A DNA stretch of 64,000 nt, from the NCBI RefSeq assembly GCF_039539965.1, contig NZ_BAABED010000001.1:4278001-4342000 (forward strand). The letters run 5' to 3'. This stretch comes from Arthrobacter methylotrophus. GTDB taxonomy: Bacteria > Actinomycetota > Actinomycetes > Actinomycetales > Micrococcaceae. This document shows, in pieces, positions 16,251 through 34,191 of this stretch. The position numbers and the translations under genes are program-made. Every line of letters begins with the position of its first letter. Position 1 is the first letter of the stretch. The notes beneath the pieces were generated by a model. It was given only the letters and a program-made list of their open reading frames with translations. It did no database searches and was not told where the DNA came from.

Positions 16251-16389
16251 ACCCCTAGTCTCGAGTGGGTTGCGATGTGAACGCGCATGTGTGGGTCTTT
16301 CTGGCTAATTGGGGCGGGTGCGGTGTTTGTTGGGGTTAAAGGCGAGTTGGCCGTTTGCGCGCAGCGACTCGATGGCGTCCTTAGGGGTT

Positions 16390-16426
16390 CGGTTCCCGGT
16401 GCGGTTGCGGGCCGCACCGGGAACCG
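16390..16426 (-). terminator. Terminator hairpin of permease I
   Basis: CGGTTCCCGGTGCGG pairs with CCGCACCGGGAACCG, 10 nt after the permease stop. The same hairpin follows permease II (34157-34191). Related GTCCCCGGTGC hairpins follow the oxidase of unit II. The duplicated block ends just beyond it (about 16381). Confidence 0.65.
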
Positions 16427-16435
16427 GCTGTTTCT

Positions 16436-18088
16436 CTAGCGCAGGTCGTCCTCCCGTTCGAGTTCGCGTTCGAGTTCGAGTTCATCGCTCAGGGTGAGCT
16501 TCCCGCGGGTCTCCTGCAGGGCCTTGGCGACACCGAGCTCGACCGGGCTAAGATGCGTGACGTCTTCTTCATCCAGGACCAGGCCGTGGTCGTCAGCGAG
16601 GGCAACGTGGCCGATGGTTTCGTACTTGACCGGGTTGGTTTTCCGCAGGTAAAGGGCCTGGCCTGCACCCACGACGAAGAGCCCGACGGTGATGTAAGGG
16701 ATGAGCTTGAAGAGCAAGGTCGAGGCCGCAGGCCCGGCAGCGGTATCCAGGTTCGTGATCATCATGATGACAACACACACCATTCCCGCTCCACCAAGTA
16801 TCGGAGCGATCTTGGTGCGCCACATCTTTTCTTCCGGGTGATGGTGTCGGAAGTAGTTGAACACGGCGGCCATGGTGAGGGTCTGCACAATCAGGAGCGA
16901 GAAGGTCCCGAGGACAGCCAGAATGGTAAACAGATCCGCGTAGGGGTCCTGATTCAAGAAGAAGAACCCAAGGATCCACGTGATTGCAATGCCTGTCTGG
17001 ACAAACGACGCGACGTGCGGGGACCCGTGCTTCGCATGGGTCTTGCCAAAGACGCCGGGCAGCACTCCTTCCCGTCCCAGCGAATACATGTACCGTGCCG
17101 CGGCGTTATGGAAAGCCATGGCGCAAGCGAAGGATCCGGTCATCATCAGCCATTCCATGGCCAGAACCCACCCGTGGCCGACAAAGACGTCCGTGGGGTG
17201 GAAGAACATGTCCAGGGGATTGGCGCTTTGCGCCAAGGCAATGGCTTGCGCGCCACCGTTACCGGCAACAGACATCCAGGAGACAAACGTGTAGAAGACA
17301 CCGACACCGGTGACCGCGATCATCGTGGCGATAGGGATGATCTTCTTCGGGTTCTTGGATTCCTCCCCGTACATCACCGTCGATTCAAACCCGGTCCAGG
17401 ACCAGAACGCGATGAACATCGCCAGTCCCGGTGCGGCGACCGACAGGCCGCCTGGCAGGAACACATTTACCGGGTTCAGCGTCTGAGGCATCAGCCCGTC
17501 AGGGCCTCCGCCGTGGAAGAGCACACCGAAGGCCATGACGGCCAGAATCCCGATCTCGGTAGCCAGCAGCAACGTCAGGATTTTCGCTGCCATGCTGATC
17601 TCAAAGTAAGTCAGCACTCCGATCAGGATCAGACCGGACAGCGCAATGACCACCCAATTCACATCCAGCCCCAGTTGATCCTTGAAAGCCAACTGACCGA
17701 AGTAAGCGAAAATACCGATGATGCTGGCCTCAAAGACGATGTAGCTGAAAGTGACCATATAACCGGTCCCCAGACCAAACACACGCCCCAACCCACGGGA
17801 AATAAATCCGTAAAACGCCGCCGTCGACGTCACGTAACGGGCCATCGTGACATACGCGACCGCAAAAACCGACAAGATCACCGTCGCCCAGATGTACGTT
17901 GCCGGAGTCCCGGTTCCGACGCCATAACCCACCGAAATCGGAACGTTACCGCTCATGACCGTAATCGGTGCAGACGTCGCGACAGCCATGAAAACAACAT
18001 CCCACAACCCCAGGGTGTTGGCCTTCAACTTACCCGGCTGGGAACCCGACCGGGAAGGAGCGTTCCCCACGGAGCTCTGCCGGCTCAT
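16436..18088 (-). CDS. APC-family amine/amino acid permease, copy I
   Basis: 550 aa, about 12 hydrophobic segments, APC superfamily fold: LWDVVFMAVATSAPITVMSG near the N-terminus, FWSWTGFESTVMYGEESKNP in the middle, and NAAARYMYSLGREGVLPGVF later. The C-terminus is cytosolic and highly charged (ELELERELEREDDLR). Its ATG overlaps the amine oxidase stop by 4 nt, so the two are translationally coupled and it likely imports the oxidase substrate (methylamine or another primary amine); this substrate is inferred from context. Its amino-acid sequence appears identical to copy II at 32494-34146, in inverted orientation. Confidence 0.88.
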   Translation of the reverse strand: MSRQSSVGNAPSRSGSQPGKLKANTLGLWDVVFMAVATSAPITVMSGNVPISVGYGVGTGTPATYIWATVILSVFAVAYVTMARYVTSTAAFYGFISRGLGRVFGLGTGYMVTFSYIVFEASIIGIFAYFGQLAFKDQLGLDVNWVVIALSGLILIGVLTYFEISMAAKILTLLLATEIGILAVMAFGVLFHGGGPDGLMPQTLNPVNVFLPGGLSVAAPGLAMFIAFWSWTGFESTVMYGEESKNPKKIIPIATMIAVTGVGVFYTFVSWMSVAGNGGAQAIALAQSANPLDMFFHPTDVFVGHGWVLAMEWLMMTGSFACAMAFHNAAARYMYSLGREGVLPGVFGKTHAKHGSPHVASFVQTGIAITWILGFFFLNQDPYADLFTILAVLGTFSLLIVQTLTMAAVFNYFRHHHPEEKMWRTKIAPILGGAGMVCVVIMMITNLDTAAGPAASTLLFKLIPYITVGLFVVGAGQALYLRKTNPVKYETIGHVALADDHGLVLDEEDVTHLSPVELGVAKALQETRGKLTLSDELELERELEREDDLR

Positions 18089-20025
18089 TGTTCGTTTCCT
18101 GTGCTGCAGTGCCCGCCGTTGGTGCCCCGGGTTTCGGTGGGGAGGTTCAGGGTGGGGTTTTGGTTGAAGAAGCCGTGGGGTTCGAGCATGAAGCCGATGT
18201 TCTGGCGGGGCATGACGGGCCAGTCTTCGAGACGGACGACGTGGTGCATGCCGAAGGTGTACCAGACCACGAGGTCCTGGTCCACGATGTTCCGGTCCTT
18301 TTCGGTCCAGACGTGCAGGCCGTCATCGGCGCCGGTGGACTGGTTCGGGAACTCCCCGGCGGCGAAGCGCTCGGTCCGGTCGTAAGCGGTGACCCAGAGG
18401 TTGTTCCGGGCGAACTGGGCACGTTTGGAGACGTAGGACTCGTCCCCGGCCGCGAGCTGGATACCATCGGTGGGGATCAACCGGTACGCGACCGGTTCAT
18501 CCACGATGTTCCTGCTCTCGTGGTTGACGACCTTCCAGAACCGGTGCTTGCCCGAATCGGTCTTACGGATCGCGGCTTTCTCGGTCTCCAGCAAACGATC
18601 CACGGCCATGAACGCGGTATGGGTGGGGTTCTCCCGGGGGATTTCCATGTCCACTTCGTAAACGGCGTTCTTCAGACCATCAAGCTCGAAGTCCATCCGG
18701 ACGTTGAACATGTGCTGGTGGATCGGGGCGTACAGGCCATCGTTGTTCAGGGACTGACCGTACGGGCTCTTCTCACCAGGCTTCTGCCCGGCAGTGGAAA
18801 GAATACCGGTGGCCTTGACCAGGAACTCGATGCTCCCGTCAAGGAAAAGGTGCCAGTAGAACGCGTACTCATAGTTCGCGACCGTAGCAATGAAGGAAAT
18901 CACCAGCTTCCGGCTGCGCCGGGTCTCGGTGGTGCCCTCACGGAAATCGAAGTGCTTCCACAAAATGGAATCGTCTTCCTCATGCATGCAGATCGCGTTC
19001 TCGATCGTCCACGGGTTACCGAGGCTGTCCACGCTATGACCATCGAAGTACTTGATCTCACCCAGGCAGTCACAACCCAACGTCAGGGAGTTGGCCATGT
19101 TACCGATGTTGTACTCACCGGAATCAAACGCGTTCTTCTTCGCCTGCACCGGGGCCGTATCACCATAAGGAACAACCATTTCCGACAACGAAGCCCGGTT
19201 GATCACCGGACGCTCAACACCCTGATCCCGGAACTTGAGCTGGTGCAGGACCAGACCCTCACGCGGGGTGAAACCAACCCGGAAAGACCAATCAGCCCAC
19301 TGCACATGATTACCCGTCACCGTGAACGACGCACCCTCGGGCTGGGTGATCTCAATGGGTTTGAGGTCCGTACGGGCCGGACCGACGTACTTGGGCAGGT
19401 AATTACCCGAAGCGGCCGGAACCGGGATCGCCTGGTCATCCTCAAGCTTGACGACCTCCCCGGAATTCAAGTCCACGATCACAATGAAATTCTCGATCGG
19501 GTGCGCGTACGGGCTATCGTCCGCCTCGTCCCGAACAAAAACCAGGGCACGCATCAAACGCCGGCCCTCATCATCCTCACCGAAATAACCCACGGACCAC
19601 GGCTCGAAACACACCAAGGACATATCCGTGATCCCGCGCTTGGCCAAAGCAGCCTGAACCTCGGGATTCTTCCGGCAACTCTCCTCACCCTCGGCGAACT
19701 CATCCACCATGAACGGCGGCTGAACACCGGCAGCAAGCTGCCTCCACGCATCCACCGTGCCCGTCTCAAGACTCACGACCGCCTCGAACGCACGCCCCTG
19801 AGCCCGGTCCACCAGAACCGCGTCCGCCTCACGCGCCACCTGCACACCATTACGCAAATCCGCCTTGGACGGCTCACGCAACTCAACACTGATAAAACGG
19901 AACGACTCCCCCGCAGCCGGGCCCTCCTTCAAAATCGAAACCGCACGGGAAATCTCCACCCGCGACAACGGATCCAACGGATGCGCCGTCCCAACAACGG
20001 CTTGAGCTTCACTGCTGATAGTCAT
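18085..20025 (-). CDS. maox: Copper/topaquinone primary-amine oxidase, copy I
   Basis: 646 aa, full length. It oxidises a primary amine to aldehyde + NH3 + H2O2; with methylamine the aldehyde is formaldehyde, which feeds HxlA. Topaquinone site TVANYEY with Y385; catalytic base D301 in AFDSGEYNIG; copper ligands H436 and H438 (IHQHMF) and the third in FGMHHVV (594/595) before RLEDWPVMP. Start ATG 20025 has AAGGAGA upstream. Methylamine as substrate is inferred from the adjoining RuMP genes and the known Arthrobacter P1 enzyme; tyramine- or phenethylamine-type oxidases share the same motifs. Identical to copy II from residue 16 onward. Confidence 0.93.
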   Translation of the reverse strand: MTISSEAQAVVGTAHPLDPLSRVEISRAVSILKEGPAAGESFRFISVELREPSKADLRNGVQVAREADAVLVDRAQGRAFEAVVSLETGTVDAWRQLAAGVQPPFMVDEFAEGEESCRKNPEVQAALAKRGITDMSLVCFEPWSVGYFGEDDEGRRLMRALVFVRDEADDSPYAHPIENFIVIVDLNSGEVVKLEDDQAIPVPAASGNYLPKYVGPARTDLKPIEITQPEGASFTVTGNHVQWADWSFRVGFTPREGLVLHQLKFRDQGVERPVINRASLSEMVVPYGDTAPVQAKKNAFDSGEYNIGNMANSLTLGCDCLGEIKYFDGHSVDSLGNPWTIENAICMHEEDDSILWKHFDFREGTTETRRSRKLVISFIATVANYEYAFYWHLFLDGSIEFLVKATGILSTAGQKPGEKSPYGQSLNNDGLYAPIHQHMFNVRMDFELDGLKNAVYEVDMEIPRENPTHTAFMAVDRLLETEKAAIRKTDSGKHRFWKVVNHESRNIVDEPVAYRLIPTDGIQLAAGDESYVSKRAQFARNNLWVTAYDRTERFAAGEFPNQSTGADDGLHVWTEKDRNIVDQDLVVWYTFGMHHVVRLEDWPVMPRQNIGFMLEPHGFFNQNPTLNLPTETRGTNGGHCSTGNEQ

Positions 20026-20644
20026 GATTATCTCCTTGATTGGTCCTGTTCAGGATGAGGATCCCCAAGTACTCCGGAAACCGGCTTCGAAGAAGCCGAG
20101 AGTGTAGGCACGGAGTTGTTGACCCACACACACGCCCGGACCTCGTGCCTAGTCTGGTAAGCGGTGTCACCGTTGCGGGACCAATAGACACAAAAGGTTC
20201 TTGGATTGTCAGAACCGTCCATCTTTGGTGCATAGGAGACTGCTTTATCGGTGGATATGGGACAGCGTTTTTGGGTATACGAAATTGCACCTTGGTGCAT
20301 ATGAGATTGCGCTGAAGATTACCTCAGAAACCCCGATTGGGGGTCCTAAAGGAATCGTCTGCAAACCCTGACATCCTCTATTTCCAGAGGGTCAGCCAGG
20401 CTCCGCTACGAGCTACGGGTATCCTGTCTACGCCCAGGCAAGCAGCTAAAAAAGGATGGCTGCTCAACAGGCGCAAACGGGATGACCAGCCACTGGCCCC
20501 CGTAGAACTCCACGTACGAGTCCGAGGGGCAGCCGGCAAAGGCTTGTTCTCGTGTCATGCTGATCAATTCCTTTCAAACCAAGTAGCCGGCGTTTCTCGG
20601 TGCCCGATGACGTTTCAGATGCCTTTTTCAAGCCGAGACCTGGC
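20026..20644. other. Long leader region of amine oxidase unit I
   Basis: About 620 bp between the oxidase start and the conserved upstream element. The only candidate small ORF is 20406-20558 on the minus strand (50 codons, starting MTREQAFAGCPSDSYVEF, with AAGGAA about 11 nt upstream). It has no recognised family and no clear counterpart in units II and III. Otherwise nothing seen. Confidence 0.3.
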
Positions 20645-20790
20645 GTGATGCCGGTCACAAGCATTCACTTCATGTATCAAAAATACGGCAGGGAATTCAT
20701 TTAGGCGAGTCATTCATAAAGATTTCACTGAGAAATTCCGGACCACGTTTTCCCATTGCAGTTAACATGTTGGAAACATTCGGAAACATG
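20645..20790 (-). promoter_or_regulatory. Conserved upstream element of amine oxidase unit I
   Basis: Contains GTGATGCCGGTCAC (20645-20658), a GTGA-N6-TCAC dyad of CRP/GlxR type, then TACGGCAGGGAATTCATT, AAAGATTTCACTGAGAAATT and TTAACATGTTGGAAACA at about 20762-20778. The same blocks in the same order lie at 31052-31188 and 31944-32085, each upstream of an oxidase start. It likely holds the promoter plus binding sites for a cAMP-receptor-type regulator and a second, unknown regulator. Confidence 0.65.
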
Positions 20791-20904
20791 GTAGTGGCTA
20801 TCGCAGACGGCCCGGGAATGCTAATGTTCTGCACCTCGGGCCGATTACTTGCGTCCCCTCAGAAGCAAGGCGAGCGTGCCCGTCGGAGGGAAAGTTGGTA
20901 AATA

Positions 20905-22377
20905 GTGTCTGCCAGCGGTGACCGCTTCATTACTCCCCGTTCCCCGGTAGAGGGCCTGAGGCGCCGGAAGCTTTCCTTCTTGCCCGTCTTCGCGCAGGCA
21001 GTAGCCGGGGTGGCGCCGGCGGGTGCGATGGCCGTCATTCCGGCTCTTGTGTTTCCGGGTCTTGTCTTTGGATCAACCGGACCGAACCTTGTGCTGACAT
21101 TCGGGGCGGCCATGGCGGTCATGGTCCTGGTTTCCTTCTGTCTGAGACCGATGGCAAAGCGCATGGCTGCCGTCAGCGGCCTCTACAGCTACACAGCCAA
21201 GGGACTTGGCCAACGGTCGGCAATCACCGCTGGCTGGTCGGCCATGTTTGGTTACGGCCTCGTTGCCATGGCCAGTCTGTTGGCTGTTGGCACCTATGTC
21301 GTCCAGCTGCTGATCAACCTCGGAGTCCCGATTCCGGATCCCCGGCTAATCGCGGTCCTGGTCATTCTTGCCGCCGCTGCCGCCGCCTGCCTGCTCATGG
21401 TGCGCGGCATCCAGGTATCCGCCCTGGTGACGTTTTCGGTCGAATCCATTTCAATTGGAGTCCTCGCCGTCCTCATGATTGTCTACTTCGCCGTCAACGC
21501 GCCGAAGGTCAGTGTCGCGAGCGTGCTTGCCTGGAACGGAAATTTTGATTCGCTATCGATCGGAATCGTCGTAGCCGTAAGTGCCTTTGTCGGCTTCGAA
21601 TGCCCGACCACCCTAGGCGGGGAGGCATACAGGCCCTTTGTCAGCGTCCCGCGGGCCATCACATGGACTCCCATCGTGACCGGCGTGCTCTTTATTCTTG
21701 CCGCGACCGCCGAGGACATAGCCCTCAACGGGGCACCGTTAAACATCGCAGCCAGCTCAACTCCGTTGTCAGCCCTTTTTTCACAGACTTCCCCTGCCTT
21801 CGCCGCGGTCCTTGACCTGGGAATCGCAGCGTCGTGGTTTGCGTGCACGATCGCATCCGTGAATGCCCTCGCCCGGATATTTTTCTGTATGGGCAGAGAA
21901 GGCGTTGCACCGCGAATAGTCGGCCGGACCCATCCCGCCTTTCGAACCCCCTCGATGGCAATCATGGTCGTCATGCCGGTAGTTGCCATCGTTCCCATCG
22001 CGGTCATCATCTCCGGTGCCAGTCCCGAGCAGGGCCTCGTGAACCTCTTCACGCTGGGCGCCTATGGATACCTTGGGGCCTATATCCTTGCCAGCGTGTC
22101 CATGCCCTTCTTCCTGCGCCGGATCGGGGAGGACACTTACGCGAGCTGGATCCTGGGAACGGCAACCTTTCTGGTCCTTGGGGCCGTGCTCTGGCAGTCT
22201 GCGACGGTATCAATTCACACAGGCAACCTGCAGACCTTCGTCTACGGCGGTGTCCTCCTCGCCAGCATCCTTTACGCCCTGTTCCTTCGCCTCCGATTAC
22301 CTGATCGTCTGGCGTCCGTGGGCATCTACGACGAGACCCGGGAAATAGACCTGTTTCACGGCAAGCCCACCCCATGA
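20905..22377 (+). CDS. APC-family permease
   Basis: 490 aa, about 12 membrane segments, APC superfamily. Visible: GVAPAGAMAVIPALVFPGLV (TM1 region), VSAFVGFECPTTLGGEAYRP (the conserved GFE motif of TM6) and ARIFFCMGREGVAPRIVG. It is distinct from the amine-oxidase permeases. GTG start at 20905 (a GGAGGG box lies about 14 nt upstream). It overlaps the IclR gene by ATGA, so that regulator probably controls it. Substrate unknown; an amino acid or amine is likely. Confidence 0.82.
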   Translation: MSASGDRFITPRSPVEGLRRRKLSFLPVFAQAVAGVAPAGAMAVIPALVFPGLVFGSTGPNLVLTFGAAMAVMVLVSFCLRPMAKRMAAVSGLYSYTAKGLGQRSAITAGWSAMFGYGLVAMASLLAVGTYVVQLLINLGVPIPDPRLIAVLVILAAAAAACLLMVRGIQVSALVTFSVESISIGVLAVLMIVYFAVNAPKVSVASVLAWNGNFDSLSIGIVVAVSAFVGFECPTTLGGEAYRPFVSVPRAITWTPIVTGVLFILAATAEDIALNGAPLNIAASSTPLSALFSQTSPAFAAVLDLGIAASWFACTIASVNALARIFFCMGREGVAPRIVGRTHPAFRTPSMAIMVVMPVVAIVPIAVIISGASPEQGLVNLFTLGAYGYLGAYILASVSMPFFLRRIGEDTYASWILGTATFLVLGAVLWQSATVSIHTGNLQTFVYGGVLLASILYALFLRLRLPDRLASVGIYDETREIDLFHGKPTP

Positions 22378-23117
22378 CCTACAGACCCACACACTCCGGC
22401 CCCAGCACAACGTCAAACCCGCTCCGGATCTTGGAGATCGTGGCACGGTTCGGCACCGGGACTACCGCGAAAGAGATCACTGATGCTCTGCAAATGCCCC
22501 CGGCGACCGCCTACCGGGTTTTGAATGCGCTCGTCGCGGACGAATACCTGGCCCGCACCTCCGACCTCCGCGGATTCGCACTCGGACACGCAATTTCAGG
22601 CCTGATTACGGCTGCGACCCCGCCCACCGTTACCACGGCGGCCCGCGCCGTCATAGCTGAATTCCGCCATGGAAACCGCTTCGCAGTGCACCTCATCATG
22701 TTCCGGAACGGTTCCCTCAGAATCGCAGATGAAGATCCGGATTACCCGCTCCAACCAGCATTCGAAATGCTCCGGTATCCACACGCTTCCGCCGCAGGGA
22801 AACTGATGCTCGCTGAACTCGGCGACTCGGCCTCCCCTCCCCAGGGAGAGCCATTGATGAAGCTGACGCAGCACACGATCACAGACAGGGGGCAACTGGA
22901 AGAGCAACTCGCGGAAATACGGTTCACAGGCGAGGCATCGGAAATCAACGAATTAGCACAGGGAACCGCCAGCCTGGCACTTCCAGTAAGACTGCCGGAC
23001 GGGTCCGCCGGCGCAGCCCTCTGCCTCTCGGGCCCCTCGGAACGGTTCCCTGCTATCTGTGAACATGCGGAAGCGGCCCGCGAACTGACGTCACGACTAG
23101 CACCGTTCCTGTACTGA
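22374..23117 (+). CDS. IclR-family transcriptional regulator
   Basis: 247 aa. N-terminal winged helix-turn-helix (residues 15-65: NPLRILEIVARFGTGTTAKE through MPPATAYRVLNALVADEYL) followed by an IclR-type effector domain containing HASAAGKLMLAELGD (about 140-154) and a C-terminal NELAQGTASLALPVRL segment. Translationally coupled to the permease at 20905, the likely target. It could also act on the adjoining amine oxidase unit I, but nothing in sequence proves that. Confidence 0.85.
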   Translation: MTYRPTHSGPSTTSNPLRILEIVARFGTGTTAKEITDALQMPPATAYRVLNALVADEYLARTSDLRGFALGHAISGLITAATPPTVTTAARAVIAEFRHGNRFAVHLIMFRNGSLRIADEDPDYPLQPAFEMLRYPHASAAGKLMLAELGDSASPPQGEPLMKLTQHTITDRGQLEEQLAEIRFTGEASEINELAQGTASLALPVRLPDGSAGAALCLSGPSERFPAICEHAEAARELTSRLAPFLY

Positions 23118-23949
23118 TTAAAAATCGGAACGGATCCATAGAGCACTCCGGACACCGCAGCCGGCTCCTGTCACACAGCAACGTTGTCCTCATTCTTTGG
23201 CCCCCAGGTCCCGTTAGACGGCGATCAGTGCAAATCAGTGCCGTTGCCTCCTTGTTCCACACTGCCGGCCAACCTCAGATCCACCGTTATTCAGACACTC
23301 CCTCGGCTAGACGGTTCGTAGTCTTGGCACTCCCCCGGTGTATCAGGAAGGCAGCGGGAGCGGGGAGGTAACCCGGACCGTTTGTCACGGACCGCCGCCT
23401 AAGGGACCTGAACGCAACACCTTCTTCCGTTCCGCGGGCTACCCTCAGAACCCGGAGTCGAAGGGATGAATCCGGCCGTCAGCCAGCTCCTCGTCCGTCT
23501 TGCGGTGTTGTCTTTGGATCACTGAAGCGGACGTTTGGGCCGAAATTAGGCCCAGGAATGGCGTTCATGGTGTTGGTTTTTCCTTCTGCGTAAGCCCAAA
23601 CGTAAGGCGTGGCTGCTGTCAACGCCCCTACAGGGCTCCACGGTTTGTACTTCCGTTACCTGCCTGGTTCCGCGGCTGTTGTGGGTGCAGGATGGCCACG
23701 TCGAGATATAACAGCCTGGCCGTGGAGGCGACCTTCACTTCGGCTCGCAACTCGGTAAGATCAGCCACAATCTGCACTGTTTTCACCGACTCGGCGATGC
23801 GCTTGAGATCCAAGATGTAACCGGAATTGCCGGCTTCCCCACGGGCACCGGCGGGCGGGGTGACTGAGCTGAGCGATAAGGACCTTCTCCGTCCTCAAGA
23901 CGGTGATGGGCGAGGCGACGACCGGCACAGGCGGGCACCTCCTAAGAGA
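23118..23949. other. Decayed intergenic region
   Basis: No intact gene. 23398-23468 repeats the opcA-3'-flank/ISL3 scar at about 14885-14955 (both contain GACCCGGAGTCGAAGG or a close form). 23505-23650 is a permease relic listed separately. On the minus strand 23628-23813 is open but unrecognised. Confidence 0.4.
23505..23650 (+). pseudogene. Relic of an APC permease like the 20905 gene
   Basis: Nucleotides match the permease gene at about 21060-21195 in several blocks: TTGTCTTTGGATCA, ATGGCG-TCATGG, TGGTTTCCTTCTG (with one added T) and GGCTGCTGTCA. The reading reads VFGS...MAFMVLV before frameshifts. It shows that the 20905-type permease was also duplicated and then lost. Confidence 0.5.
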
Positions 23950-24195
23950 ATGGCAACCATGGAGACCAGAGACGCCACCGACGTTTACGAGGCACTGAAG
24001 ACCCTGCGCGGACAGCTCGCACAGCTGGCTGTGGACGGCCGCATCGTCATGAGCGGGGACATACTGAACCCCCGCCACGACTCCGCGCAGGCCACGGCCG
24101 AAGCCCTCGCAGGGCTGGACGCCGCTATCAAAGCCACCTGCTGGATGGAAACCCTGAGCACCATGGACGGGGATTATCCTCTCCTGGAGGCCTGA
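23950..24195 (+). CDS. Small protein, unknown function
   Basis: 81 aa from ATG 23950 (another Met three codons later). Helical and acidic: DVYEALKTLRGQLAQLAVDG, then AEALAGLDAAIKATCWMETL. No membrane segment, no recognised domain. No strong ribosome-binding site. Flanked by relics; plausible but unproven gene. Confidence 0.4.
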   Translation: MATMETRDATDVYEALKTLRGQLAQLAVDGRIVMSGDILNPRHDSAQATAEALAGLDAAIKATCWMETLSTMDGDYPLLEA

Positions 24196-24415
24196 AACAC
24201 GACCGGACACCGGAAGAAGCCGCGTGGGGTGCAGTCGCACCCCACCGCTGCCGACACGGCTGGCAGAGGGCGACCAGTCGGTGACCATGGCTGCCTGAAC
24301 GAGGCAGGACCCGCCCAGGCGTGATGACGGCGGTACCGCATCCTTCGGCCATCAAGACAGCAAGGGCGGCCTACGGACGCACGCCCGGTCCTCAGGTGCA
24401 CTGCCGGAGACTTCA

Positions 24416-26912: not shown

Positions 26913-26984
26913 GTTTCGGCTCAAATCTAAGAAGGTTTGCGGGCATGGGTTCCGCCCGGTGACATGAGTGGTGGAGGGCGGACG

Positions 26985-28475
26985 CTAGGCCGATCCCAGG
27001 GCGGCAAGCACCGGCATGGCTTCCTCAACGACATCCCTCGCCGGGAACGACGGCCGCTTCACGCCGGCCATTTCTTCCATGACGCGCACTACCTGGCAGG
27101 AGTAGCCGAATTCGTTGTCGTACCAGACATAGACCACGAGGTTCTTGTCGTTGGCGATGGTGGCCAGGCCATCCACGATGCCCGCACGGCGGGAGCCCAC
27201 GAAGTCCGTGGAGACAACCTCGGGCGAATCGATGAAGTCGATCTGCTTGCGTAGCTCCGAGTGCAATGACATCTCGCGAAGGTAGTTGTTCACTTCCTCC
27301 TTCGTGGTCCCCGTCTCCAGGCTCAGGTTCAAAATGGCCATCGACACATCCGGGGTCGGTACCCGGATCGCGTTGCCGGTCAGCTTGCCCTGCAGCTCGG
27401 GCAGGGCCTTGGCCACGGCCTTGGCCGCACCCGTTTCGGTGATGACCATGTTCAGGGCCGCCGAACGCCCGCGCCGGTCGCCCTTGTGGAAGTTATCGAT
27501 CAGGTTCTGATCGTTCGTGAACGAGTGCACGGTCTCCACGTGCCCGTGGATGACGCCGAACTTGTCGTTGAGTGCCTTCAGCACCGGGGTGATCGCGTTC
27601 GTGGTGCACGACGCCGCGGTGACGATCCTGTCCGAGTCCAGAATCGAGGAATGGTTGATGCCATGAACGATGTTTTTCAGCTCACCCTTGCCCGGAGCCG
27701 TGAGCAACACCCGTGCCACGCCCTTGCTGCGCAGGTGCTGGGACAGGCCCTCGGCATCGCGCCACCGGCCCGTGTTATCCACCACCAAAGCATCCTTGAT
27801 GCCGTAGGCCGTGTAATCGACAGTGGAAGGGTTCTCCGAGTAGATAACCTGGATCTGCACCCCGTTGGCCGTGATCGTGTTGGCGGCCTCGTCCACGCGG
27901 ATGGTGCCTTCGAAGGAACCATGCACCGAATCCCGGCGCAGCAGGCTCGCGCGCTTGACGAGATCGTTCTCGGCGCCCTTGCGCACCACGATCGCGCGCA
28001 GGCGCAGGCCATGCCCGCCGCCGGCCTTCTCAATCAGGAGCCGGGCCAGGAGCCGGCCGATGCGCCCGAAACCATACAGCACCACATCCGTACTGCTCCG
28101 GTCGTCCGCGCCCCGACGCCCGAGAACCCCGGCCAGCTCGGCCCGGAGGAATTCCTCCAAAGCCAGGCCACCGCCGTCGAACTTGAACTTCTCGTTCAAC
28201 CGCGCAATATCAATCGCCGCGGCCCCGAGCTCCAGCCCCGCCAGGATGTTCAACAACGGCGCCGTCTCCTCGAGCAGCAGCTCTTCCTTGCTGATCCGAC
28301 GCGCGAAACGGTGCGCCTTCAAGATGCTCATCGTGGACATGTTGACCAGGCTGCGCCCATGGATGCTCGTCACCACATTGTTTTCCCGGTACAACCGGCC
28401 AATCACCGGAATCATGGCCTCAGCCAACGCTTCCCGGCCCATCCACATAAGACGAGAAGCTGAAGTCTCTAGCAT
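26985..28475 (-). CDS. gap: Glyceraldehyde-3-phosphate dehydrogenase, long form
   Basis: 496 aa, some 150 longer than classic GAPDH. The first ~128 residues form a helical extension; the NAD-binding domain begins at 131 with GFGRIGR (135-141). Catalytic cysteine C290 lies in AASCTTNAITPVL, and the C-terminal NDKNLVVYVWYDNEFGYSCQ is standard. Such long GapDH forms occur in Arthrobacter-type actinobacteria. ATG 28475 is preceded by GGAAAGGCAG. Together with pfkA downstream it makes a glycolytic pair next to the amine genes, suited to carry RuMP carbon onward. Confidence 0.92.
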   Translation of the reverse strand: MLETSASRLMWMGREALAEAMIPVIGRLYRENNVVTSIHGRSLVNMSTMSILKAHRFARRISKEELLLEETAPLLNILAGLELGAAAIDIARLNEKFKFDGGGLALEEFLRAELAGVLGRRGADDRSSTDVVLYGFGRIGRLLARLLIEKAGGGHGLRLRAIVVRKGAENDLVKRASLLRRDSVHGSFEGTIRVDEAANTITANGVQIQVIYSENPSTVDYTAYGIKDALVVDNTGRWRDAEGLSQHLRSKGVARVLLTAPGKGELKNIVHGINHSSILDSDRIVTAASCTTNAITPVLKALNDKFGVIHGHVETVHSFTNDQNLIDNFHKGDRRGRSAALNMVITETGAAKAVAKALPELQGKLTGNAIRVPTPDVSMAILNLSLETGTTKEEVNNYLREMSLHSELRKQIDFIDSPEVVSTDFVGSRRAGIVDGLATIANDKNLVVYVWYDNEFGYSCQVVRVMEEMAGVKRPSFPARDVVEEAMPVLAALGSA

Positions 28476-28548
28476 CGGACTGCCTTTCCGAATAATGCTG
28501 GTCTGTTTGAGTTTTGGCCCCTGAGATGGTCCAGGGAGGGGCTTGGCA

Positions 28549-28683
28549 TCAAATGGATGTTTGGCTTACCGTTCCGTCGGCCGGAGCACGGCCGGTAGCG
28601 GCGTGGCCGGCCATCACGGCGAACATGGGGGCTGCGGCGGTGAGGGTCCAGGTAATTGCGGGGATGTTGAACACGCGGATCAC
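28549..28683 (-). pseudogene. Truncated copy of the DUF5134-like membrane protein gene
   Basis: 44 codons from GTG 28683. The first 15 or so (MIRVFNIPAITWTLTA) match the start of the intact gene at 34227 (MIRVFNIPAITWSLTA), as does the upstream DNA. The rest (APMFAVMAGHAATGRAP and on) resembles only the very C-terminal end of that protein. Most of the gene has been deleted. It marks the third gene of unit II, whose permease is missing. Confidence 0.7.
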
Positions 28684-28715
28684 GCTCTCGCTGCTGGGTT
28701 TGGGTGGGGTATGGG

Positions 28716-28756
28716 TTCAGTCCCCGGTGCGGATGTGGACAGCACCGGGGACTGAA
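28716..28756 (-). terminator. Hairpin downstream of unit II oxidase (distal)
   Basis: TTCAGTCCCCGGTGC pairs perfectly with GCACCGGGGACTGAA. It shares the GTCCCCGGTGC core with the hairpins after both permeases. Confidence 0.6.
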
Positions 28757-28777
28757 GATCGGGGTGGAAAAAGGGGT

Positions 28778-28816
28778 GTGGTCCCCGGTGCGGATGCGGA
28801 CGGCACCGGGGACCAC
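28778..28816 (-). terminator. Hairpin downstream of unit II oxidase (proximal)
   Basis: GTGGTCCCCGGTGC pairs perfectly with GCACCGGGGACCAC, 20 bp after the oxidase stop. Tandem with 28716-28756; both are probably copies of the hairpin that ends the amine units. Confidence 0.6.
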
Positions 28817-28835
28817 GGTTATTGCTTGCTTGCCT

Positions 28836-30776
28836 TTATTGTTCGTTTCCTGTGCTGCAGTGCCCGCCGTTGGTGCCCCGGGTTTCGGTGGGGAGGTTCA
28901 GGGTGGGGTTTTGGTTGAAGAAGCCGTGGGGTTCGAGCATGAAGCCGATGTTCTGGCGGGGCATGACGGGCCAGTCTTCGAGACGGACGACGTGGTGCAT
29001 GCCGAAGGTGTACCAGACCACGAGGTCCTGGTCCACGATGTTCCGGTCCTTTTCGGTCCAGACGTGCAGGCCGTCATCGGCGCCGGTGGACTGGTTCGGG
29101 AACTCCCCGGCGGCGAAGCGCTCGGTCCGGTCGTAAGCGGTGACCCAGAGGTTGTTCCGGGCGAACTGGGCACGTTTGGAGACGTAGGACTCGTCCCCGG
29201 CCGCGAGCTGGATACCATCGGTGGGGATCAACCGGTACGCGACCGGTTCATCCACGATGTTCCTGCTCTCGTGGTTGACGACCTTCCAGAACCGGTGCTT
29301 GCCCGAATCGGTCTTACGGATCGCGGCTTTCTCGGTCTCCAGCAAACGATCCACGGCCATGAACGCGGTATGGGTGGGGTTCTCCCGGGGGATTTCCATG
29401 TCCACTTCGTAAACGGCGTTCTTCAGACCATCAAGCTCGAAGTCCATCCGGACGTTGAACATGTGCTGGTGGATCGGGGCGTACAGGCCATCGTTGTTCA
29501 GGGACTGACCGTACGGGCTCTTCTCACCGGGCTTCTGCCCGGCAGTGGAAAGAATACCGGTGGCCTTGACCAGGAACTCGATGCTCCCGTCAAGGAAAAG
29601 GTGCCAGTAGAACGCGTACTCATAGTTCGCGACCGTAGCAATGAAGGAAATCACCAGCTTCCGGCTGCGCCGGGTCTCGGTGGTGCCCTCACGGAAATCG
29701 AAGTGCTTCCACAAAATGGAATCGTCTTCCTCATGCATGCAGATCGCGTTCTCGATCGTCCACGGGTTACCGAGGCTGTCCACGCTATGACCATCGAAGT
29801 ACTTGATCTCACCCAGGCAGTCACAACCCAACGTCAGGGAGTTGGCCATGTTACCGATGTTGTACTCACCGGAATCAAACGCGTTCTTCTTCGCCTGCAC
29901 CGGGGCCGTATCACCATAAGGAACAACCATTTCCGACAACGAAGCCCGGTTGATCACCGGACGCTCAACACCCTGATCCCGGAACTTGAGCTGGTGCAGG
30001 ACCAGACCCTCACGCGGGGTGAAACCAACCCGGAAAGACCAATCAGCCCACTGCACATGATTACCCGTCACCGTGAACGACGCACCCTCGGGCTGGGTGA
30101 TCTCAATGGGTTTGAGGTCCGTACGGGCCGGACCGACGTACTTGGGCAGGTAATTACCCGAAGCGGCCGGAACCGGGATCGCCTGGTCATCCTCAAGCTT
30201 GACGACCTCCCCGGAATTCAAGTCCACGATCACAATGAAATTCTCGATCGGGTGCGCGTACGGGCTATCGTCCGCCTCGTCCCGAACAAAAACCAGGGCA
30301 CGCATCAAACGCCGGCCCTCATCATCCTCACCGAAATAACCCACGGACCACGGCTCGAAACACACCAAGGACATATCCGTGATCCCGCGCTTGGCCAAAG
30401 CAGCCTGAACCTCGGGATTCTTCCGGCAACTCTCCTCACCCTCGGCGAACTCATCCACCATGAACGGCGGCTGAACACCGGCAGCAAGCTGCCTCCACGC
30501 ATCCACCGTGCCCGTCTCAAGACTCACGACCGCCTCGAACGCACGCCCCTGAGCCCGGTCCACCAGAACCGCGTCCGCCTCACGCGCCACCTGCACACCA
30601 TTACGCAAATCCGCCTTGGACGGCTCACGCAACTCAACACTGATAAAACGGAACGACTCCCCCGCAGCCGGGCCCTCCTTCAAAATCGAAACCGCACGGG
30701 AAATCTCCACCCGCGACAACGGATCCAACGGATGCGACACACCCACAACGGCTTCGTTTTCAATATCAAGAGTCAC
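28836..30776 (-). CDS. maox: Copper/topaquinone primary-amine oxidase, copy II
   Basis: 646 aa with all catalytic residues of copy I (D301, topaquinone Y385, H436, H438, third His at 594/595). It differs from copy I only in the first 15 residues (MTLDIENEAVVGVSH instead of MTISSEAQAVVGTAH); I noted one silent base change further on. GTG start at 30776 has AAGGAGAAA upstream. The stop is TAA and no permease follows: the coupled permease is deleted and only hairpins plus a DUF5134-like remnant come next. Function as for copy I. Confidence 0.93.
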   Translation of the reverse strand: MTLDIENEAVVGVSHPLDPLSRVEISRAVSILKEGPAAGESFRFISVELREPSKADLRNGVQVAREADAVLVDRAQGRAFEAVVSLETGTVDAWRQLAAGVQPPFMVDEFAEGEESCRKNPEVQAALAKRGITDMSLVCFEPWSVGYFGEDDEGRRLMRALVFVRDEADDSPYAHPIENFIVIVDLNSGEVVKLEDDQAIPVPAASGNYLPKYVGPARTDLKPIEITQPEGASFTVTGNHVQWADWSFRVGFTPREGLVLHQLKFRDQGVERPVINRASLSEMVVPYGDTAPVQAKKNAFDSGEYNIGNMANSLTLGCDCLGEIKYFDGHSVDSLGNPWTIENAICMHEEDDSILWKHFDFREGTTETRRSRKLVISFIATVANYEYAFYWHLFLDGSIEFLVKATGILSTAGQKPGEKSPYGQSLNNDGLYAPIHQHMFNVRMDFELDGLKNAVYEVDMEIPRENPTHTAFMAVDRLLETEKAAIRKTDSGKHRFWKVVNHESRNIVDEPVAYRLIPTDGIQLAAGDESYVSKRAQFARNNLWVTAYDRTERFAAGEFPNQSTGADDGLHVWTEKDRNIVDQDLVVWYTFGMHHVVRLEDWPVMPRQNIGFMLEPHGFFNQNPTLNLPTETRGTNGGHCSTGNEQ

Positions 30777-31051
30777 GAAAATTTCTCCTTATTAGGTCCT
30801 GATTCAGGACGAGCTTGCTGATCCAGATGAGTGCCGGCCGTACCGAATTGCGGCGCGTACATGCCAAGCTTGGATTCCCCAATACTGTTCTTCTTTGACA
30901 GAATTGTTCATCCCTTTGGTTGGAAATAGACCTTGGTGCCAACAAAACTGCACCGACAATCGCTGCCACCCCTGCGAGCCCGGGGAACTAGCGCCAAATC
31001 GGCGTCCCACTTCCATGAGATCAGCCGGGCTCTGCTCCGAGCCCGACCCGT

Positions 31052-31188
31052 GTGATGCTGGTCACCGCATTCCCTTCACGCATTAAAGCTACGGCAGGGA
31101 ATTGACTTCGGCGAGGCCTTTTTAAAGATTTACGTGAGAAATTTGGGACCACATTTTCGCATCTGAGTTAACATGTTGGAAACACTTG
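31052..31188 (-). promoter_or_regulatory. Conserved upstream element of amine oxidase unit II
   Basis: GTGATGCTGGTCAC at 31052-31065, then TACGGCAGGGAATTGACTT, AAAGATTTACGTGAGAAATT and GTTAACATGTTGGAAACA near 31167. Same block order as in unit I. It lies about 275 bp before the oxidase start at 30776. Confidence 0.65.
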
Positions 31189-31943
31189 AACACAGCCACA
31201 GGAGTCGCTGCCAAGGTTGCTGAAGTCCTGACTTGGGGGCCGATAACTCTCAACATCGCCGCCACGAATCAGCCCAACGATGTCGCTGCTTCGCATCCCG
31301 CGTACCAGTTCGGCCAGCTCAAGCAGACCCAGTTCCAACCCCTGGATTCCCCCGTTAACATTCATTGGGTCCCGGACGCCCGGGGGTTTGGTCTCTGGAC
31401 CCGGCATGACTCTCTTGCCCTGTCTTTGATTACCCGCGTGGTGTTGTCGCCGCATTCGGCCGGCTTCTTCCGCGGCCAACGTTTCTAGGTGCCAGCATCG
31501 GGTGTCGTGACTGCGGCCATGAGTGGCGCAAAGGAGAGCCTGAATGGACGGACGATTGATACAAGATCCAGCGAAGGTTTGATGTCGGCAAGCCCAAGCA
31601 TCACCCCGCGGCATTGAATGCCTGACGGAAAGGGTCTCCGACAGGCTCCTGCCCCAGGGGCGAGACACGGCTGCGTGAGCTCTTCACCGGGGCTGGAGCA
31701 GCACGGCAGGGTGCCGGTCATCGTAGACCAGCCCAGCACCATCGGTGCCTCGCCGATAGCACGGCCCGGGACTCTCAGAATCCAACTGGCGTAGGTCCTT
31801 TGAGCCGCCGTCGAAATAGCGGAGTGATGAACCGAACACCACATGCAGGCACCTTGATACCAACTTTTCCTTCGATGGGCATGCTCACCCCTAGGAACAA
31901 GGGAGGTCATCGATCCGAGATGCAACCCTTGGCATTGACGACA
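31189..31943. other. Region between the two divergent amine-unit promoters
   Basis: About 750 bp between the facing elements of units II and III. Open frames occur on both strands but none resembles a known protein, has a good start site, or is kept in unit I. Nothing else recognised. Confidence 0.35.
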
Positions 31944-32085
31944 GTTCCCATATGTTTCCAACATGTTAATTAGACCGGGAAAATTCGATCATCAATTTCT
32001 CACGGAAATTTTCGTCCGCGCCTCCCCAAAATGAATTGCCTGCCGTACTTTTAGTTGGTAAAGGAATGCAGGTGAGCGGCATCAC
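31944..32085 (+). promoter_or_regulatory. Conserved upstream element of unit III
   Basis: In plus orientation: TGTTTCCAACATGTTAATT (about 31953-31971), AATTTCTCACGGAAATTTTCG, AATGAATTGCCTGCCGTA, and GTGAGCGGCATCAC at 32072-32085. It is the mirror image of the unit I and II elements and lies about 350 bp before the oxidase-remnant ATG at 32432. Confidence 0.62.
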
Positions 32086-32431
32086 AACGGCGGAGTTCAG
32101 AGCAGAGCTTGGCCGAACCCATTGGGAGGATGCCTGGTCTGTGGATAATCCCTCCCGGACCCCCACCGGGGTTTGCGAGGTGATTACCAGCGCAGAATCA
32201 TGTGCACCAAGGATGACCGGTTCTGACAACGAGGAACAGTTCCGGCAAACCCACGGGCCCTTTTATGTCTATTGTCCCGACCGCATCACCATCTATCCTC
32301 GGCCGAGTCGGCTGTAAGTCCGCTGCTTGGCGCACGCCTGCACGGCGTTTTCAAGGGCCGGTCCCGGAGTACTTCAGCCCCCTGCCGTCAGTAAATTCAT
32401 CATTTATGTGGACCAATTCAAGGAGAAGAGC

Positions 32432-32497
32432 ATGACTCTCGATATTGAATCAGTGACCGCCAACGGCGGGCACTGCAGCACAGGAAACGAACAATGA
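32432..32497 (+). pseudogene. Amine oxidase remnant kept as a 21-codon leader ORF
   Basis: ATG 32432 has AAGGAGAAG upstream and reads MTLDIE, the start of oxidase copy II, then four junction codons, then NGGHCSTGNEQ, the exact C-terminus of the oxidases. The gene has lost about 625 internal codons yet stays in frame. Its TGA overlaps the permease ATG just as in unit I. It is no longer an enzyme, but it still delivers ribosomes to the permease start. Confidence 0.85.
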
Positions 32498-34146
32498 GCC
32501 GGCAGAGCTCCGTGGGGAACGCTCCTTCCCGGTCGGGTTCCCAGCCGGGTAAGTTGAAGGCCAACACCCTGGGGTTGTGGGATGTTGTTTTCATGGCTGT
32601 CGCGACGTCTGCACCGATTACGGTCATGAGCGGTAACGTTCCGATTTCGGTGGGTTATGGCGTCGGAACCGGGACTCCGGCAACGTACATCTGGGCGACG
32701 GTGATCTTGTCGGTTTTTGCGGTCGCGTATGTCACGATGGCCCGTTACGTGACGTCGACGGCGGCGTTTTACGGATTTATTTCCCGTGGGTTGGGGCGTG
32801 TGTTTGGTCTGGGGACCGGTTATATGGTCACTTTCAGCTACATCGTCTTTGAGGCCAGCATCATCGGTATTTTCGCTTACTTCGGTCAGTTGGCTTTCAA
32901 GGATCAACTGGGGCTGGATGTGAATTGGGTGGTCATTGCGCTGTCCGGTCTGATCCTGATCGGAGTGCTGACTTACTTTGAGATCAGCATGGCAGCGAAA
33001 ATCCTGACGTTGCTGCTGGCTACCGAGATCGGGATTCTGGCCGTCATGGCCTTCGGTGTGCTCTTCCACGGCGGAGGCCCTGACGGGCTGATGCCTCAGA
33101 CGCTGAACCCGGTAAATGTGTTCCTGCCAGGCGGCCTGTCGGTCGCCGCACCGGGACTGGCGATGTTCATCGCGTTCTGGTCCTGGACCGGGTTTGAATC
33201 GACGGTGATGTACGGGGAGGAATCCAAGAACCCGAAGAAGATCATCCCTATCGCCACGATGATCGCGGTCACCGGTGTCGGTGTCTTCTACACGTTTGTC
33301 TCCTGGATGTCTGTTGCCGGTAACGGTGGCGCGCAAGCCATTGCCTTGGCGCAAAGCGCCAATCCCCTGGACATGTTCTTCCACCCCACGGACGTCTTTG
33401 TCGGCCACGGGTGGGTTCTGGCCATGGAATGGCTGATGATGACCGGATCCTTCGCTTGCGCCATGGCTTTCCATAACGCCGCGGCACGGTACATGTATTC
33501 GCTGGGACGGGAAGGAGTGCTGCCCGGCGTCTTTGGCAAGACCCATGCGAAGCACGGGTCCCCGCACGTCGCGTCGTTTGTCCAGACAGGCATTGCAATC
33601 ACGTGGATCCTTGGGTTCTTCTTCTTGAATCAGGACCCCTACGCGGATCTGTTTACCATTCTGGCTGTCCTCGGGACCTTCTCGCTCCTGATTGTGCAGA
33701 CCCTCACCATGGCCGCCGTGTTCAACTACTTCCGACACCATCACCCGGAAGAAAAGATGTGGCGCACCAAGATCGCTCCGATACTTGGTGGAGCGGGAAT
33801 GGTGTGTGTTGTCATCATGATGATCACGAACCTGGATACCGCTGCCGGGCCTGCGGCCTCGACCTTGCTCTTCAAGCTCATCCCTTACATCACCGTCGGG
33901 CTCTTCGTCGTGGGTGCAGGCCAGGCCCTTTACCTGCGGAAAACCAACCCGGTCAAGTACGAAACCATCGGCCACGTTGCCCTCGCTGACGACCACGGCC
34001 TGGTCCTGGATGAAGAAGACGTCACGCATCTTAGCCCGGTCGAGCTCGGTGTCGCCAAGGCCCTTCAGGAGACCCGCGGGAAGCTCACCCTGAGCGATGA
34101 ACTCGAACTCGAACGCGAACTCGAACGGGAGGACGACCTGCGCTAG
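32494..34146 (+). CDS. APC-family amine/amino acid permease, copy II
   Basis: 550 aa, amino-acid sequence apparently identical to copy I (16436-18088) but in the opposite orientation; the DNA match runs from the last oxidase codons to just past the terminator hairpin. Start ATG 32494 overlaps the remnant oxidase stop. Probable role: uptake of the amine substrate for the oxidases. In unit III it is followed by the DUF5134-like gene and the LuxR-type regulator. Confidence 0.88.
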   Translation: MSRQSSVGNAPSRSGSQPGKLKANTLGLWDVVFMAVATSAPITVMSGNVPISVGYGVGTGTPATYIWATVILSVFAVAYVTMARYVTSTAAFYGFISRGLGRVFGLGTGYMVTFSYIVFEASIIGIFAYFGQLAFKDQLGLDVNWVVIALSGLILIGVLTYFEISMAAKILTLLLATEIGILAVMAFGVLFHGGGPDGLMPQTLNPVNVFLPGGLSVAAPGLAMFIAFWSWTGFESTVMYGEESKNPKKIIPIATMIAVTGVGVFYTFVSWMSVAGNGGAQAIALAQSANPLDMFFHPTDVFVGHGWVLAMEWLMMTGSFACAMAFHNAAARYMYSLGREGVLPGVFGKTHAKHGSPHVASFVQTGIAITWILGFFFLNQDPYADLFTILAVLGTFSLLIVQTLTMAAVFNYFRHHHPEEKMWRTKIAPILGGAGMVCVVIMMITNLDTAAGPAASTLLFKLIPYITVGLFVVGAGQALYLRKTNPVKYETIGHVALADDHGLVLDEEDVTHLSPVELGVAKALQETRGKLTLSDELELERELEREDDLR

Positions 34147-34156
34147 AGAAACAGCC

Positions 34157-34191
34157 GGTCCCCGGTGCGGCCCGCAACCGCACCGGGAACC
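34157..34191 (+). terminator. Terminator hairpin of permease II
   Basis: GGTCCCCGGTGCGG pairs with CCGCACCGGGAACC (one mismatch), 10 nt after the permease stop. It is the counterpart of 16390-16426. Confidence 0.6.

What the first reader, a model, noticed from the sequence alone, without database searches (positions are those of the whole stretch)
16381..34191. Three copies of one amine-utilisation unit, with reciprocal gene loss in two of them
Seen: unit I has oxidase + permease; unit II has oxidase and a truncated DUF5134-like gene but no permease; unit III has permease and the DUF5134-like gene but only a stub of oxidase. Inference: the ancestral unit was oxidase-permease-DUF5134, triplicated, and units II and III have lost complementary parts, so together the divergent pair still makes one full set. 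Complementary loss around one shared regulatory zone looks like subfunctionalisation by deletion.
Basis: partly seen in the sequence, partly recalled or inferred. Interest (0 to 1): 0.8.

Follow-up and report, generated by a model that had tools for sequence, protein, structure and literature searches.

The report
Methylamine oxidase genes that stay identical
A soil bacterium carries six near-identical copies of a methylamine-eating enzyme gene under different switches, and relatives with two copies keep theirs alike too, apparently by the copies overwriting one another; the three units seen here are rearranged members of that family rather than a neat split of labour.

Summary
The anatomy is as described: unit I oxidase+permease; unit II oxidase plus DUF5134 remnant, no permease; unit III permease+DUF5134 with an oxidase stub. 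The genome holds six oxidase copies (99-100% alike) and three permeases in methylated-amine/RuMP islands. Two oxidase locus types recur in relatives. Within each of 7 genomes with two or more readable copies, copies are 98.6-100% identical, against 77-98% between species. Fourfold sites differ at 0-4 of about 300 within genomes, but at 29/288 and 30/293 between same-locus copies of two strains of one species. Upstream DNA is nearly unrelated. Copies I and II differ at 16 of the first 45 bases and 1 of the next 1,842. This is concerted evolution, best explained by recurrent gene conversion. Unit III is a real in-frame oxidase deletion, shared with strain MA-N2. Unit II probably never had a permease: all nine beta loci read lack one and its body matches theirs. 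Intact oxidase-permease pairs exist elsewhere, so subfunctionalisation is not supported. Near-identical copies were in print (PMC5023230); my searches listed no report of gene conversion for them.

The parts
16436..18088 (-). unit I permease (APC family)
   Evidence: PF13520 4.4e-33; 1 of 1653 nt differs from unit III and 1 of 1653 from the 85.9-kb copy
18085..20025 (-). unit I copper amine oxidase (methylamine oxidase type)
   Evidence: PF01179 3e-156; best-scoring solved relatives are Arthrobacter phenylethylamine oxidase; 0 of 1941 nt differ from the copy at 84 kb
16382..18122 (.). left arm of the inverted repeat (permease + hairpin + last ~34 nt of oxidase)
   Evidence: 99.885% over 1741 nt to 32460-34200
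32460..34200 (.). right arm of the inverted repeat
20762..20778 (-). 17-bp alpha-type motif upstream of unit I oxidase
   Evidence: exact; 3 in window vs 0.03 expected at up to 3 mismatches
20905..22377 (+). second permease (PERM2), divergent from oxidase I; alpha-locus marker
   Evidence: PF13520 5e-16; 87.4% to its paralogue at 82-83 kb, 98.0% to MA-N2
22374..23117 (+). IclR-type regulator; alpha-locus marker
   Evidence: PF01614/PF09339
25887..26924 (-). phosphofructokinase
   Evidence: PF00365
26985..28475 (-). glyceraldehyde-3-phosphate dehydrogenase
28635..28683 (-). unit II DUF5134 remnant (start only)
   Evidence: 28635-28752 is 89% to 34158-34275; start codon read by eye
28719..28814 (-). 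two GC-rich hairpins after oxidase II, shared with the copies at 67, 88 and 4050 kb
   Evidence: read directly, no fold call
28836..30776 (-). unit II oxidase (GTG start); first 45 nt locus-specific
   Evidence: 16 of first 45 nt and 1 of next 1842 differ from unit I
31168..31184 (-). 17-bp motif, unit II side
31953..31969 (+). 17-bp motif, unit III side
32432..32497 (+). unit III leader ORF (21 aa): in-frame oxidase deletion, stop overlaps permease start
   Evidence: 2 of 66 nt differ in MA-N2, frame kept
32494..34146 (+). unit III permease
34227..34901 (+). DUF5134 protein with a Met/His-rich segment
   Evidence: PF17197 2.5e-16; sequence
34993..36366 (+). LuxR-type regulator
   Evidence: PF00196; 90.5% to paralogue at 92-93 kb, 95.9% to MA-N2
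1238..5445 (+). transketolase, transaldolase, ribulose-P epimerase: second copies of genes at 93-98 kb
   Evidence: 99.5-100% to paralogues, 95.7-97.1% to MA-N2; Pfam of the paralogues
10313..14886 (+). SIS-domain isomerase (hexuloisomerase type), c11 (hexulose-P synthase by context, no family call), G6PD, OpcA: second copies of 76-81 kb
   Evidence: 98.2-100% to paralogues, 93.8-97.4% to MA-N2; Pfam of two paralogues and of G6PD

Best explanation
The three units belong to a dispersed family of six copper amine (methylamine) oxidase genes and three partner permeases inside duplicated methylated-amine/RuMP-cycle islands of an Arthrobacter. Ectopic homologous recombination between copies repeatedly overwrites the coding sequences (gene conversion), so the enzyme stays identical at all loci while promoters, some regulators and, at some copies, the first ~15 codons stay locus-specific. 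The likely benefit is dosage plus separate regulation: one enzyme made under an IclR/permease2 (alpha) locus for methylamine and under a demethylase (beta) locus for methylamine released from di-/trimethylamine. Unit I is an alpha unit; unit II is a permease-less body under an alpha-type upstream region; unit III is an alpha unit whose oxidase was deleted in frame, leaving a 21-codon leader that probably couples translation of the permease. Shown: copy number, identity pattern, locus-specific edges, synteny, stub. Inferred: conversion as mechanism, substrate, dosage, translational coupling.
For: Six full-length oxidases and three permeases in one chromosome. Within-genome identity 98.57-100% in 7 of 7 genomes with at least 2 readable copies; between genomes 76.8-97.7% among 13 representative rows; two further named genomes: 2 of 1887 (Arthrobacter sp. 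18067) and 6 of 1887 (35W) differences. Fourfold sites: 0-4 of 297-314 within genomes, 29/288 and 30/293 between same-locus copies of window strain and MA-N2, 24/305 to 130/267 for the between-species pairs counted. Oxidase tree groups by genome; one alpha clade rejected, p-AU 1.9e-14 with strictly classified rows and 2e-59 with all rows. Edges: 13-16 of the first 45 nt differ between copies in 4 genomes while 0-11 of the next 1841-1842 do. Upstream 300 nt 36-45% identical in 10 pairs, single shuffled controls 18-36%. Neighbours on the same duplicated islands diverged: PERM2 87.4%, LuxR 90.5%, DUF5134 83.4%, although each has a closer MA-N2 orthologue (94-98%), so the islands predate the strain split. 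Leader conserved. Motif in 11 of 11 alpha loci (at most 2 mismatches) and 0 of 11 loci without alpha markers (at most 3).
Against: No conversion event was observed directly. Repeated independent re-duplication into the same sites would look alike. MA-N2 is a draft with N runs inside its oxidase copies, so only two of its copies could be used. Unit II mixes alpha (upstream motif) and beta (body, 5' codons nearest G023 beta: 8 of 45 differences) features. IclR is 96.6% between paralogues, as much as to MA-N2, so the contrast between enzymes and regulators is not clean. In 3 of the 7 genomes (G083, G058, G077) and at the other copies of the window genome the first 45 nt are homogenised too, so the edge is not general. 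The TKT/TAL/RPE/G6PD/OpcA similarity could be a later segmental copy, since full-length MA-N2 partners were seen once only. Substrate was not tested.
Confidence: 0.87

Rival explanations
1. One reading: an oxidase-permease-DUF5134 unit was triplicated and units II and III lost complementary parts, leaving a subfunctionalised divergent pair.
For: Oxidase-permease-DUF5134 order exists; unit III deletion is real; II and III share a divergent intergenic zone, each with the 17-bp motif.
Against: 9 of 9 beta loci lack a permease between oxidase and DUF5134 and unit II's body matches the beta copy at 98.9%; intact oxidase-permease pairs exist at unit I and 84 kb, so nothing forces II and III to complement; oxidases I and II are 98.8% identical as proteins.
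Confidence: 0.1
2. Recent independent amplification: each species re-copied its oxidase into other sites lately, with no conversion between long-standing copies.
For: Would also give within-genome identity; copies 83 and 88 kb look like a tandem duplication (2,402-2,403 bp, 99.96%).
Against: Both locus types have the same neighbours across species (alpha: PERM2+IclR; beta: EutQ/DmmA-like genes); MA-N2 shares the window's loci; locus-specific first codons and upstream regions survive at copies in four genomes, expected of conversion inside existing genes and not of fresh insertions.
Confidence: 0.07
3. Assembly artefact: repeat collapse or misjoining created the pattern.
For: MA-N2's draft shows N runs and a scaffold end inside oxidase copies, so short-read assemblies do fail here; the copy at 88 kb has a one-base frameshift beside a homopolymer.
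Against: The window lies in a 4.92-Mb contig with six copies resolved in distinct flanks; five other two-copy genomes have both copies on one contig of 4.3-5.0 Mb; MA-N2 has the same II/III arrangement.
Confidence: 0.03
4. Purifying selection alone keeps the proteins alike.
For: Copper amine oxidase domains and active-site positions are conserved.
Against: Fourfold sites differ at 0-1.3% within genomes while they differ at 8-49% between genomes.
Confidence: 0.01

Closest known systems
[quoted passage not shown] PMC6053082, abstract and passages read)
   Same: Within-genome paralogues more alike than orthologues, distinct conserved synteny, synonymous sites also homogenised; entry enzymes of a primary pathway; mtmBC/mtbBC also handle methylamines
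   Different: The term amine oxidase has 0 occurrences in its main text; here actinobacterial, up to six copies, with locus-specific first codons at some copies and an in-frame deleted copy
Near-identical mao copies of Arthrobacter 31Y, 35W, MA-N2 and Bacillus (PMC5023230, abstract and passages read)
   Same: Same gene, same kind of C1 islands; MA-N2 is the same species as the window; copies described as nearly identical
   Different: That paper explains them as multiplication of rate-limiting genes and leaves MA-N2's partial copies open; the terms gene conversion, concerted and recombination have 0 occurrences
Arthrobacter P1 maoxI/maoxII (Zhang et al. 1993, recalled; look-up not held)
   Same: Two near-identical methylamine oxidase genes in one strain (recalled)
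   Different: Not compared here; two copies rather than six
Arthrobacter phenylethylamine oxidase (AGAO, PDB 1rjo/1av4)
   Same: Best-scoring solved relatives; NYEY and HQH/H positions align (their roles recalled; alignment)
   Different: Distant in sequence (527.8 bits over ~635 residues); its gene was not examined here

Membership tests
Concerted evolution by gene conversion | Paralogues within a genome more alike than syntenic orthologues | tested here: met
Concerted evolution by gene conversion | Copies in distinct, conserved synteny in at least five species (rule of PMC6053082) | tested here: met
   Alpha and beta both read in 6 species (window species, G023, G083, G094, G058, G077)
Concerted evolution by gene conversion | Synonymous sites homogenised as well | tested here: met
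   0-4 of 297-314 fourfold sites
Concerted evolution by gene conversion | Conversion edges: sharp change of identity inside or at the gene | tested here: met
   First 45 nt 13-16 differences against 0-11 in the rest in 4 of the 7 genomes, none in the other 3; upstream near background in 10 of 10 pairs
Concerted evolution by gene conversion | Conversion shown by experiment or in strain series | not testable with these tools
   Needs cultures or many strains
Copper amine oxidase | PF01179 catalytic domain with N2/N3 domains | tested here: met
Copper amine oxidase | Topaquinone-precursor Tyr and copper His conserved | tested here: met
   NYEY, HQH and later H align with 1rjo (roles recalled)
Methylamine oxidase (Mao) | Oxidises methylamine | not testable with these tools
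   Inferred from C1/RuMP neighbours and from MA-N2's genes being called Mao in PMC5023230
Subfunctionalisation by complementary loss | Unit II formerly held a permease | tested here: inconclusive
   MA-N2 unit II has none; beta loci 9 of 9 without; but alpha-type motif upstream
Subfunctionalisation by complementary loss | Both partial copies needed to keep one full set | tested here: not met
   Intact oxidase-permease pairs at unit I and at 84-87.6 kb

The most novel reading that the evidence does not exclude
In this genus the catalytic genes of methylamine oxidation and the RuMP cycle form a 'same enzyme, many switches' system: selection and recombination keep the oxidase, its permease and probably the sugar-phosphate enzymes identical at up to six loci, while promoters and several neighbours are left to diverge. 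The 1.74-kb inverted permease arms act as a reversible inversion that moves the DUF5134-LuxR tail between an oxidase-led unit and a leader-led, oxidase-free unit.
Probability: 0.25. Interest if true: 0.7.

Novelty: new member of a known kind. Interest (0 to 1): 0.5.

Why it matters
It adds an actinobacterial enzyme to the short list of protein genes under long-lasting concerted evolution, and a second kind of methylamine-entry enzyme after the archaeal methyltransferases, which hints that primary-substrate enzymes are favoured targets. It gives a likely answer to the open remark in PMC5023230 on MA-N2's partial mao genes: near-identical copies break short-read assemblies. It also offers a clean bench system (identical enzyme, different upstream regions, natural in-frame deletion) for asking why cells keep identical duplicates.

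Tried and rejected
Rejected: purifying selection alone; assembly artefact as the main cause. No Rfam match at gathering score in 14000-37000. Promoter/terminator scan of 30700-32500 gave 2 promoter-like sites (shuffles 0.8, sd 1.0) and 1 terminator-like site (shuffles 1.7, sd 1.4), nothing clearly above background. Adjacency counts did not distinguish the present from the flipped gene order (8 of 14 shared with the 60-100-kb island and 4 of 5 with G083, either way), and LuxR keeps an orientation unlike G083's in both. Only the uninterrupted IclR-PERM2-OX-PERM-DUF5134 run speaks for an inversion, and MA-N2's draft shows the present order, so the inversion stays a prediction.

Rows dropped or handled: two of six ORFs were called wrongly (II and 88 kb), so only its counts for the other copies are used and all were redone. 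G091 fragments, gapped MA-N2 copies, the 72-73% oxidases of G076/G080 and the 64% own paralogue at 2.14 Mb were left out of the trees. In one search the rows II and A67 (67 kb) were labelled beta although II carries the alpha motif and A67 has other neighbours; one search repeats the test without them, MA-N2 and the 88-kb copy. One search scored at most 3 candidates per genome and its list was cut, so its copy counts are floors; 12 of 101 sampled genomes showed a match of 78% or more over at least 1,500 nt. In one search the motif was also sought in 13 named loci: 5 had it (L107, L108, L116, L128, L129), 8 did not (L106, L109, L111, L112, L113, L115, L126, L133); those not already held under a G handle were not classified by neighbours.

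Literature: nine searches. None of the listings showed a paper on gene conversion of amine or methylamine oxidase genes; the library lacks most subscription journals.
Full report
What is in the window. The window is bases 4,278,001-4,342,000 of a 4.92-Mb contig of a 5.08-Mb genome. Unit I reads oxidase 18085-20025 then permease 16436-18088 on the minus strand, with an ATGA overlap. Unit II has the oxidase 28836-30776, two GC-rich hairpins and the first 16 or so codons of a DUF5134 gene. Unit III has a leader ORF 32432-32497, the permease 32494-34146, an intact DUF5134 gene (PF17197) and a LuxR-type regulator. The permease arms are inverted and differ at 2 of 1,741 positions.

More copies than three. 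Searching the same genome with the permease and oxidase found six full-length oxidase copies: window I and II, and 67, 84, 88 and 4,050 kb. It found three permeases: window I and III, and 86 kb. The copies at I and 84 kb are identical over 1,941 nt. The other four differ from I by 0 to 17 substitutions in 1,886-1,887 nt; the 88-kb copy also lacks one base, which breaks its frame beside a homopolymer, real or a sequencing error.

What the genes are. The oxidase is a copper amine oxidase (PF01179, NCBIfam primary-amine oxidase), with Arthrobacter phenylethylamine oxidase as the best-scoring solved structure. Around the copies lie a SIS-domain isomerase, G6PD, OpcA, transketolase, transaldolase, ribulose-phosphate epimerase, 6-phosphogluconate dehydrogenase, phosphofructokinase and GAPDH. 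At the 4,050-kb locus there are also EutQ-like cupins, a DmmA-family protein, a haem-dependent N-demethylase-like protein and FMO-type monooxygenases. I read this as a methylated-amine and ribulose-monophosphate island. PMC5023230 (abstract and passages read) describes such islands in Arthrobacter sp. MA-N2, which is G079 here: the scaffold lengths 697,242 and 3,718,084 agree.

Two locus types. I call alpha the loci where the oxidase is next to a divergent PERM2 and IclR: 11 loci in 8 species, namely window I, 84 kb, two in MA-N2 (same species as the window), G023, G083, G094, G058, G077, G084, G095. Beta is the type preceded by the EutQ/DmmA-like/demethylase-like genes: 9 loci in 8 species. 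In all nine beta loci DUF5134 follows the oxidase with no permease between. In the eight alpha loci that could be read, a permease gene follows: the unit I/III family in window I, 84 kb and G083, and another APC cluster (c3; Pfam run on two members from other loci) in G023, G094, G058, G077 and G084. For G095 the ORF there was not identified, and MA-N2's two alpha loci are cut by gaps or a scaffold end. A 17-bp motif lies upstream in 11 of 11 alpha loci with at most 2 mismatches and is absent from 11 of 11 loci without alpha markers (nine beta plus the 67-kb locus in two strains) at up to 3 mismatches. It is also upstream of II, III and the 88-kb copy. In the window, 3 were found against 0.03 expected. 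Each of the named genomes 18067 and 35W has one oxidase locus with and one without it; these were not classified by neighbours.

Concerted evolution. In 7 of 7 genomes with at least two readable copies the copies are 98.57-100% identical; between genomes, among 13 representative rows, 76.8-97.7%. Fourfold sites differ at 0-4 of 297-314 within genomes. They differ at 29 of 288 and 30 of 293 between the same loci of the window strain and MA-N2, and at 24 of 305 to 130 of 267 in the between-species pairs counted. A tree of 1,842 columns groups oxidases by genome; forcing alpha together is rejected (p-AU 2e-59 with all 22 rows; 1.9e-14 with 17 strictly classified rows). Two more genomes, 18067 and 35W, have 2 and 6 differences in 1,887.

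Edges. Copy II differs from copy I at 16 of the first 45 nt and 1 of the next 1,842. The same holds for MA-N2 (16 and 11), G023 (14 and 0) and G094 (13 and 11). In G083, G058 and G077, and among the other five copies of the window genome, the first 45 nt are homogenised as well. Unit II's first 45 nt are identical to MA-N2's unit II and nearer to G023 beta (8 differences) than to unit I (16). Upstream 300-nt stretches are 36-45% identical in 10 pairs against 18-36% for single shuffled controls. Permease homogenisation carries about the last 36 nt of the oxidase with it.

Control genes. Between the window island and the 60-100-kb island, PERM2 is 87.4%, LuxR 90.5% and DUF5134 83.4% identical, while each is 94-98% to its MA-N2 orthologue, so these islands were doubled before the strains split. 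In the same islands oxidase and permease are 99.9-100% and the sugar-phosphate genes 98.2-100%. IclR is 96.6% both ways, so it does not fit a simple enzyme/regulator divide. Within genomes DUF5134 copies are 66-92% alike, except the 67/88-kb pair at 98.7-99.7%.

Unit III. The leader reads MTLDIESVTANGGHCSTGNEQ. Its first 18 nt differ from unit II's oxidase start at 2 places and its end is the oxidase end; the few codons between match neither. MA-N2 has the same leader with 2 of 66 changes and an open frame. The overlap of its stop with the permease start is the same as at unit I, so coupling of translation is a reasonable inference, untested.

The inversion idea. Flipping the segment between the permease arms would give IclR-PERM2-oxidase-permease-DUF5134 in one run, as in G083. 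On that view DUF5134 sits next to unit III because of recombination inside the permease. Adjacency counts do not decide it, LuxR stays oriented unlike G083's either way, and MA-N2's draft shows the present order, so I hold it as a prediction.

Verdict. The ancestral order and the oxidase loss in unit III are supported; permease loss from unit II and a subfunctionalised pair are not. The stronger result is concerted evolution of methylamine oxidase genes across species of this genus. By the five-species rule of PMC6053082 (abstract and passages read) it would qualify as a further case; the term amine oxidase does not occur in that main text. Near-identical copies themselves were known (PMC5023230; also maoxI/II of Arthrobacter P1, recalled). 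Searches listed no report of gene conversion for these genes.

Noticed in passing
G000:C1:4055011-4056990 and 4058616-4060595 (L027): An FMO-type monooxygenase plus EutQ-like cupin forms an inverted pair 99.95% identical over 1,980 bp, also paired in MA-N2: probably the same homogenisation.
   Followed up: partly
L086-L089 (MA-N2): MA-N2's draft has N runs and a scaffold end inside oxidase copies, which likely explains the partial mao genes discussed in PMC5023230.
   Followed up: yes
L125, L131, L150, L157, L160, L166, L167, L170, L171, L173, L175: In these 11 of 70 loci (Arthrobacter, Pseudarthrobacter and Cryobacterium drafts) the contig ends inside the oxidase gene, as expected if they too hold near-identical copies.
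   Followed up: no
L026:8159-10098 (C1:88.1-90.1 kb): Tandem oxidase copy with a one-base frameshift next to a homopolymer; pseudogene or sequencing error.
   Followed up: partly
window 34227-34901: DUF5134 copies carry a Met/His-rich stretch (10-13% Met+His in 6 of 6 proteins looked at, no background control), which may hint at a copper link with the oxidase.
   Followed up: no
window 46181-46564 and 48155-48544: A pair of diverged repeated genes (66% over 396 nt) outside the finding.
   Followed up: no
CP000476.1:205648-207585 and others: An oxidase 73% identical in protein sits on a plasmid of Paenarthrobacter aurescens TC1 and on plasmids of related strains.
   Followed up: no
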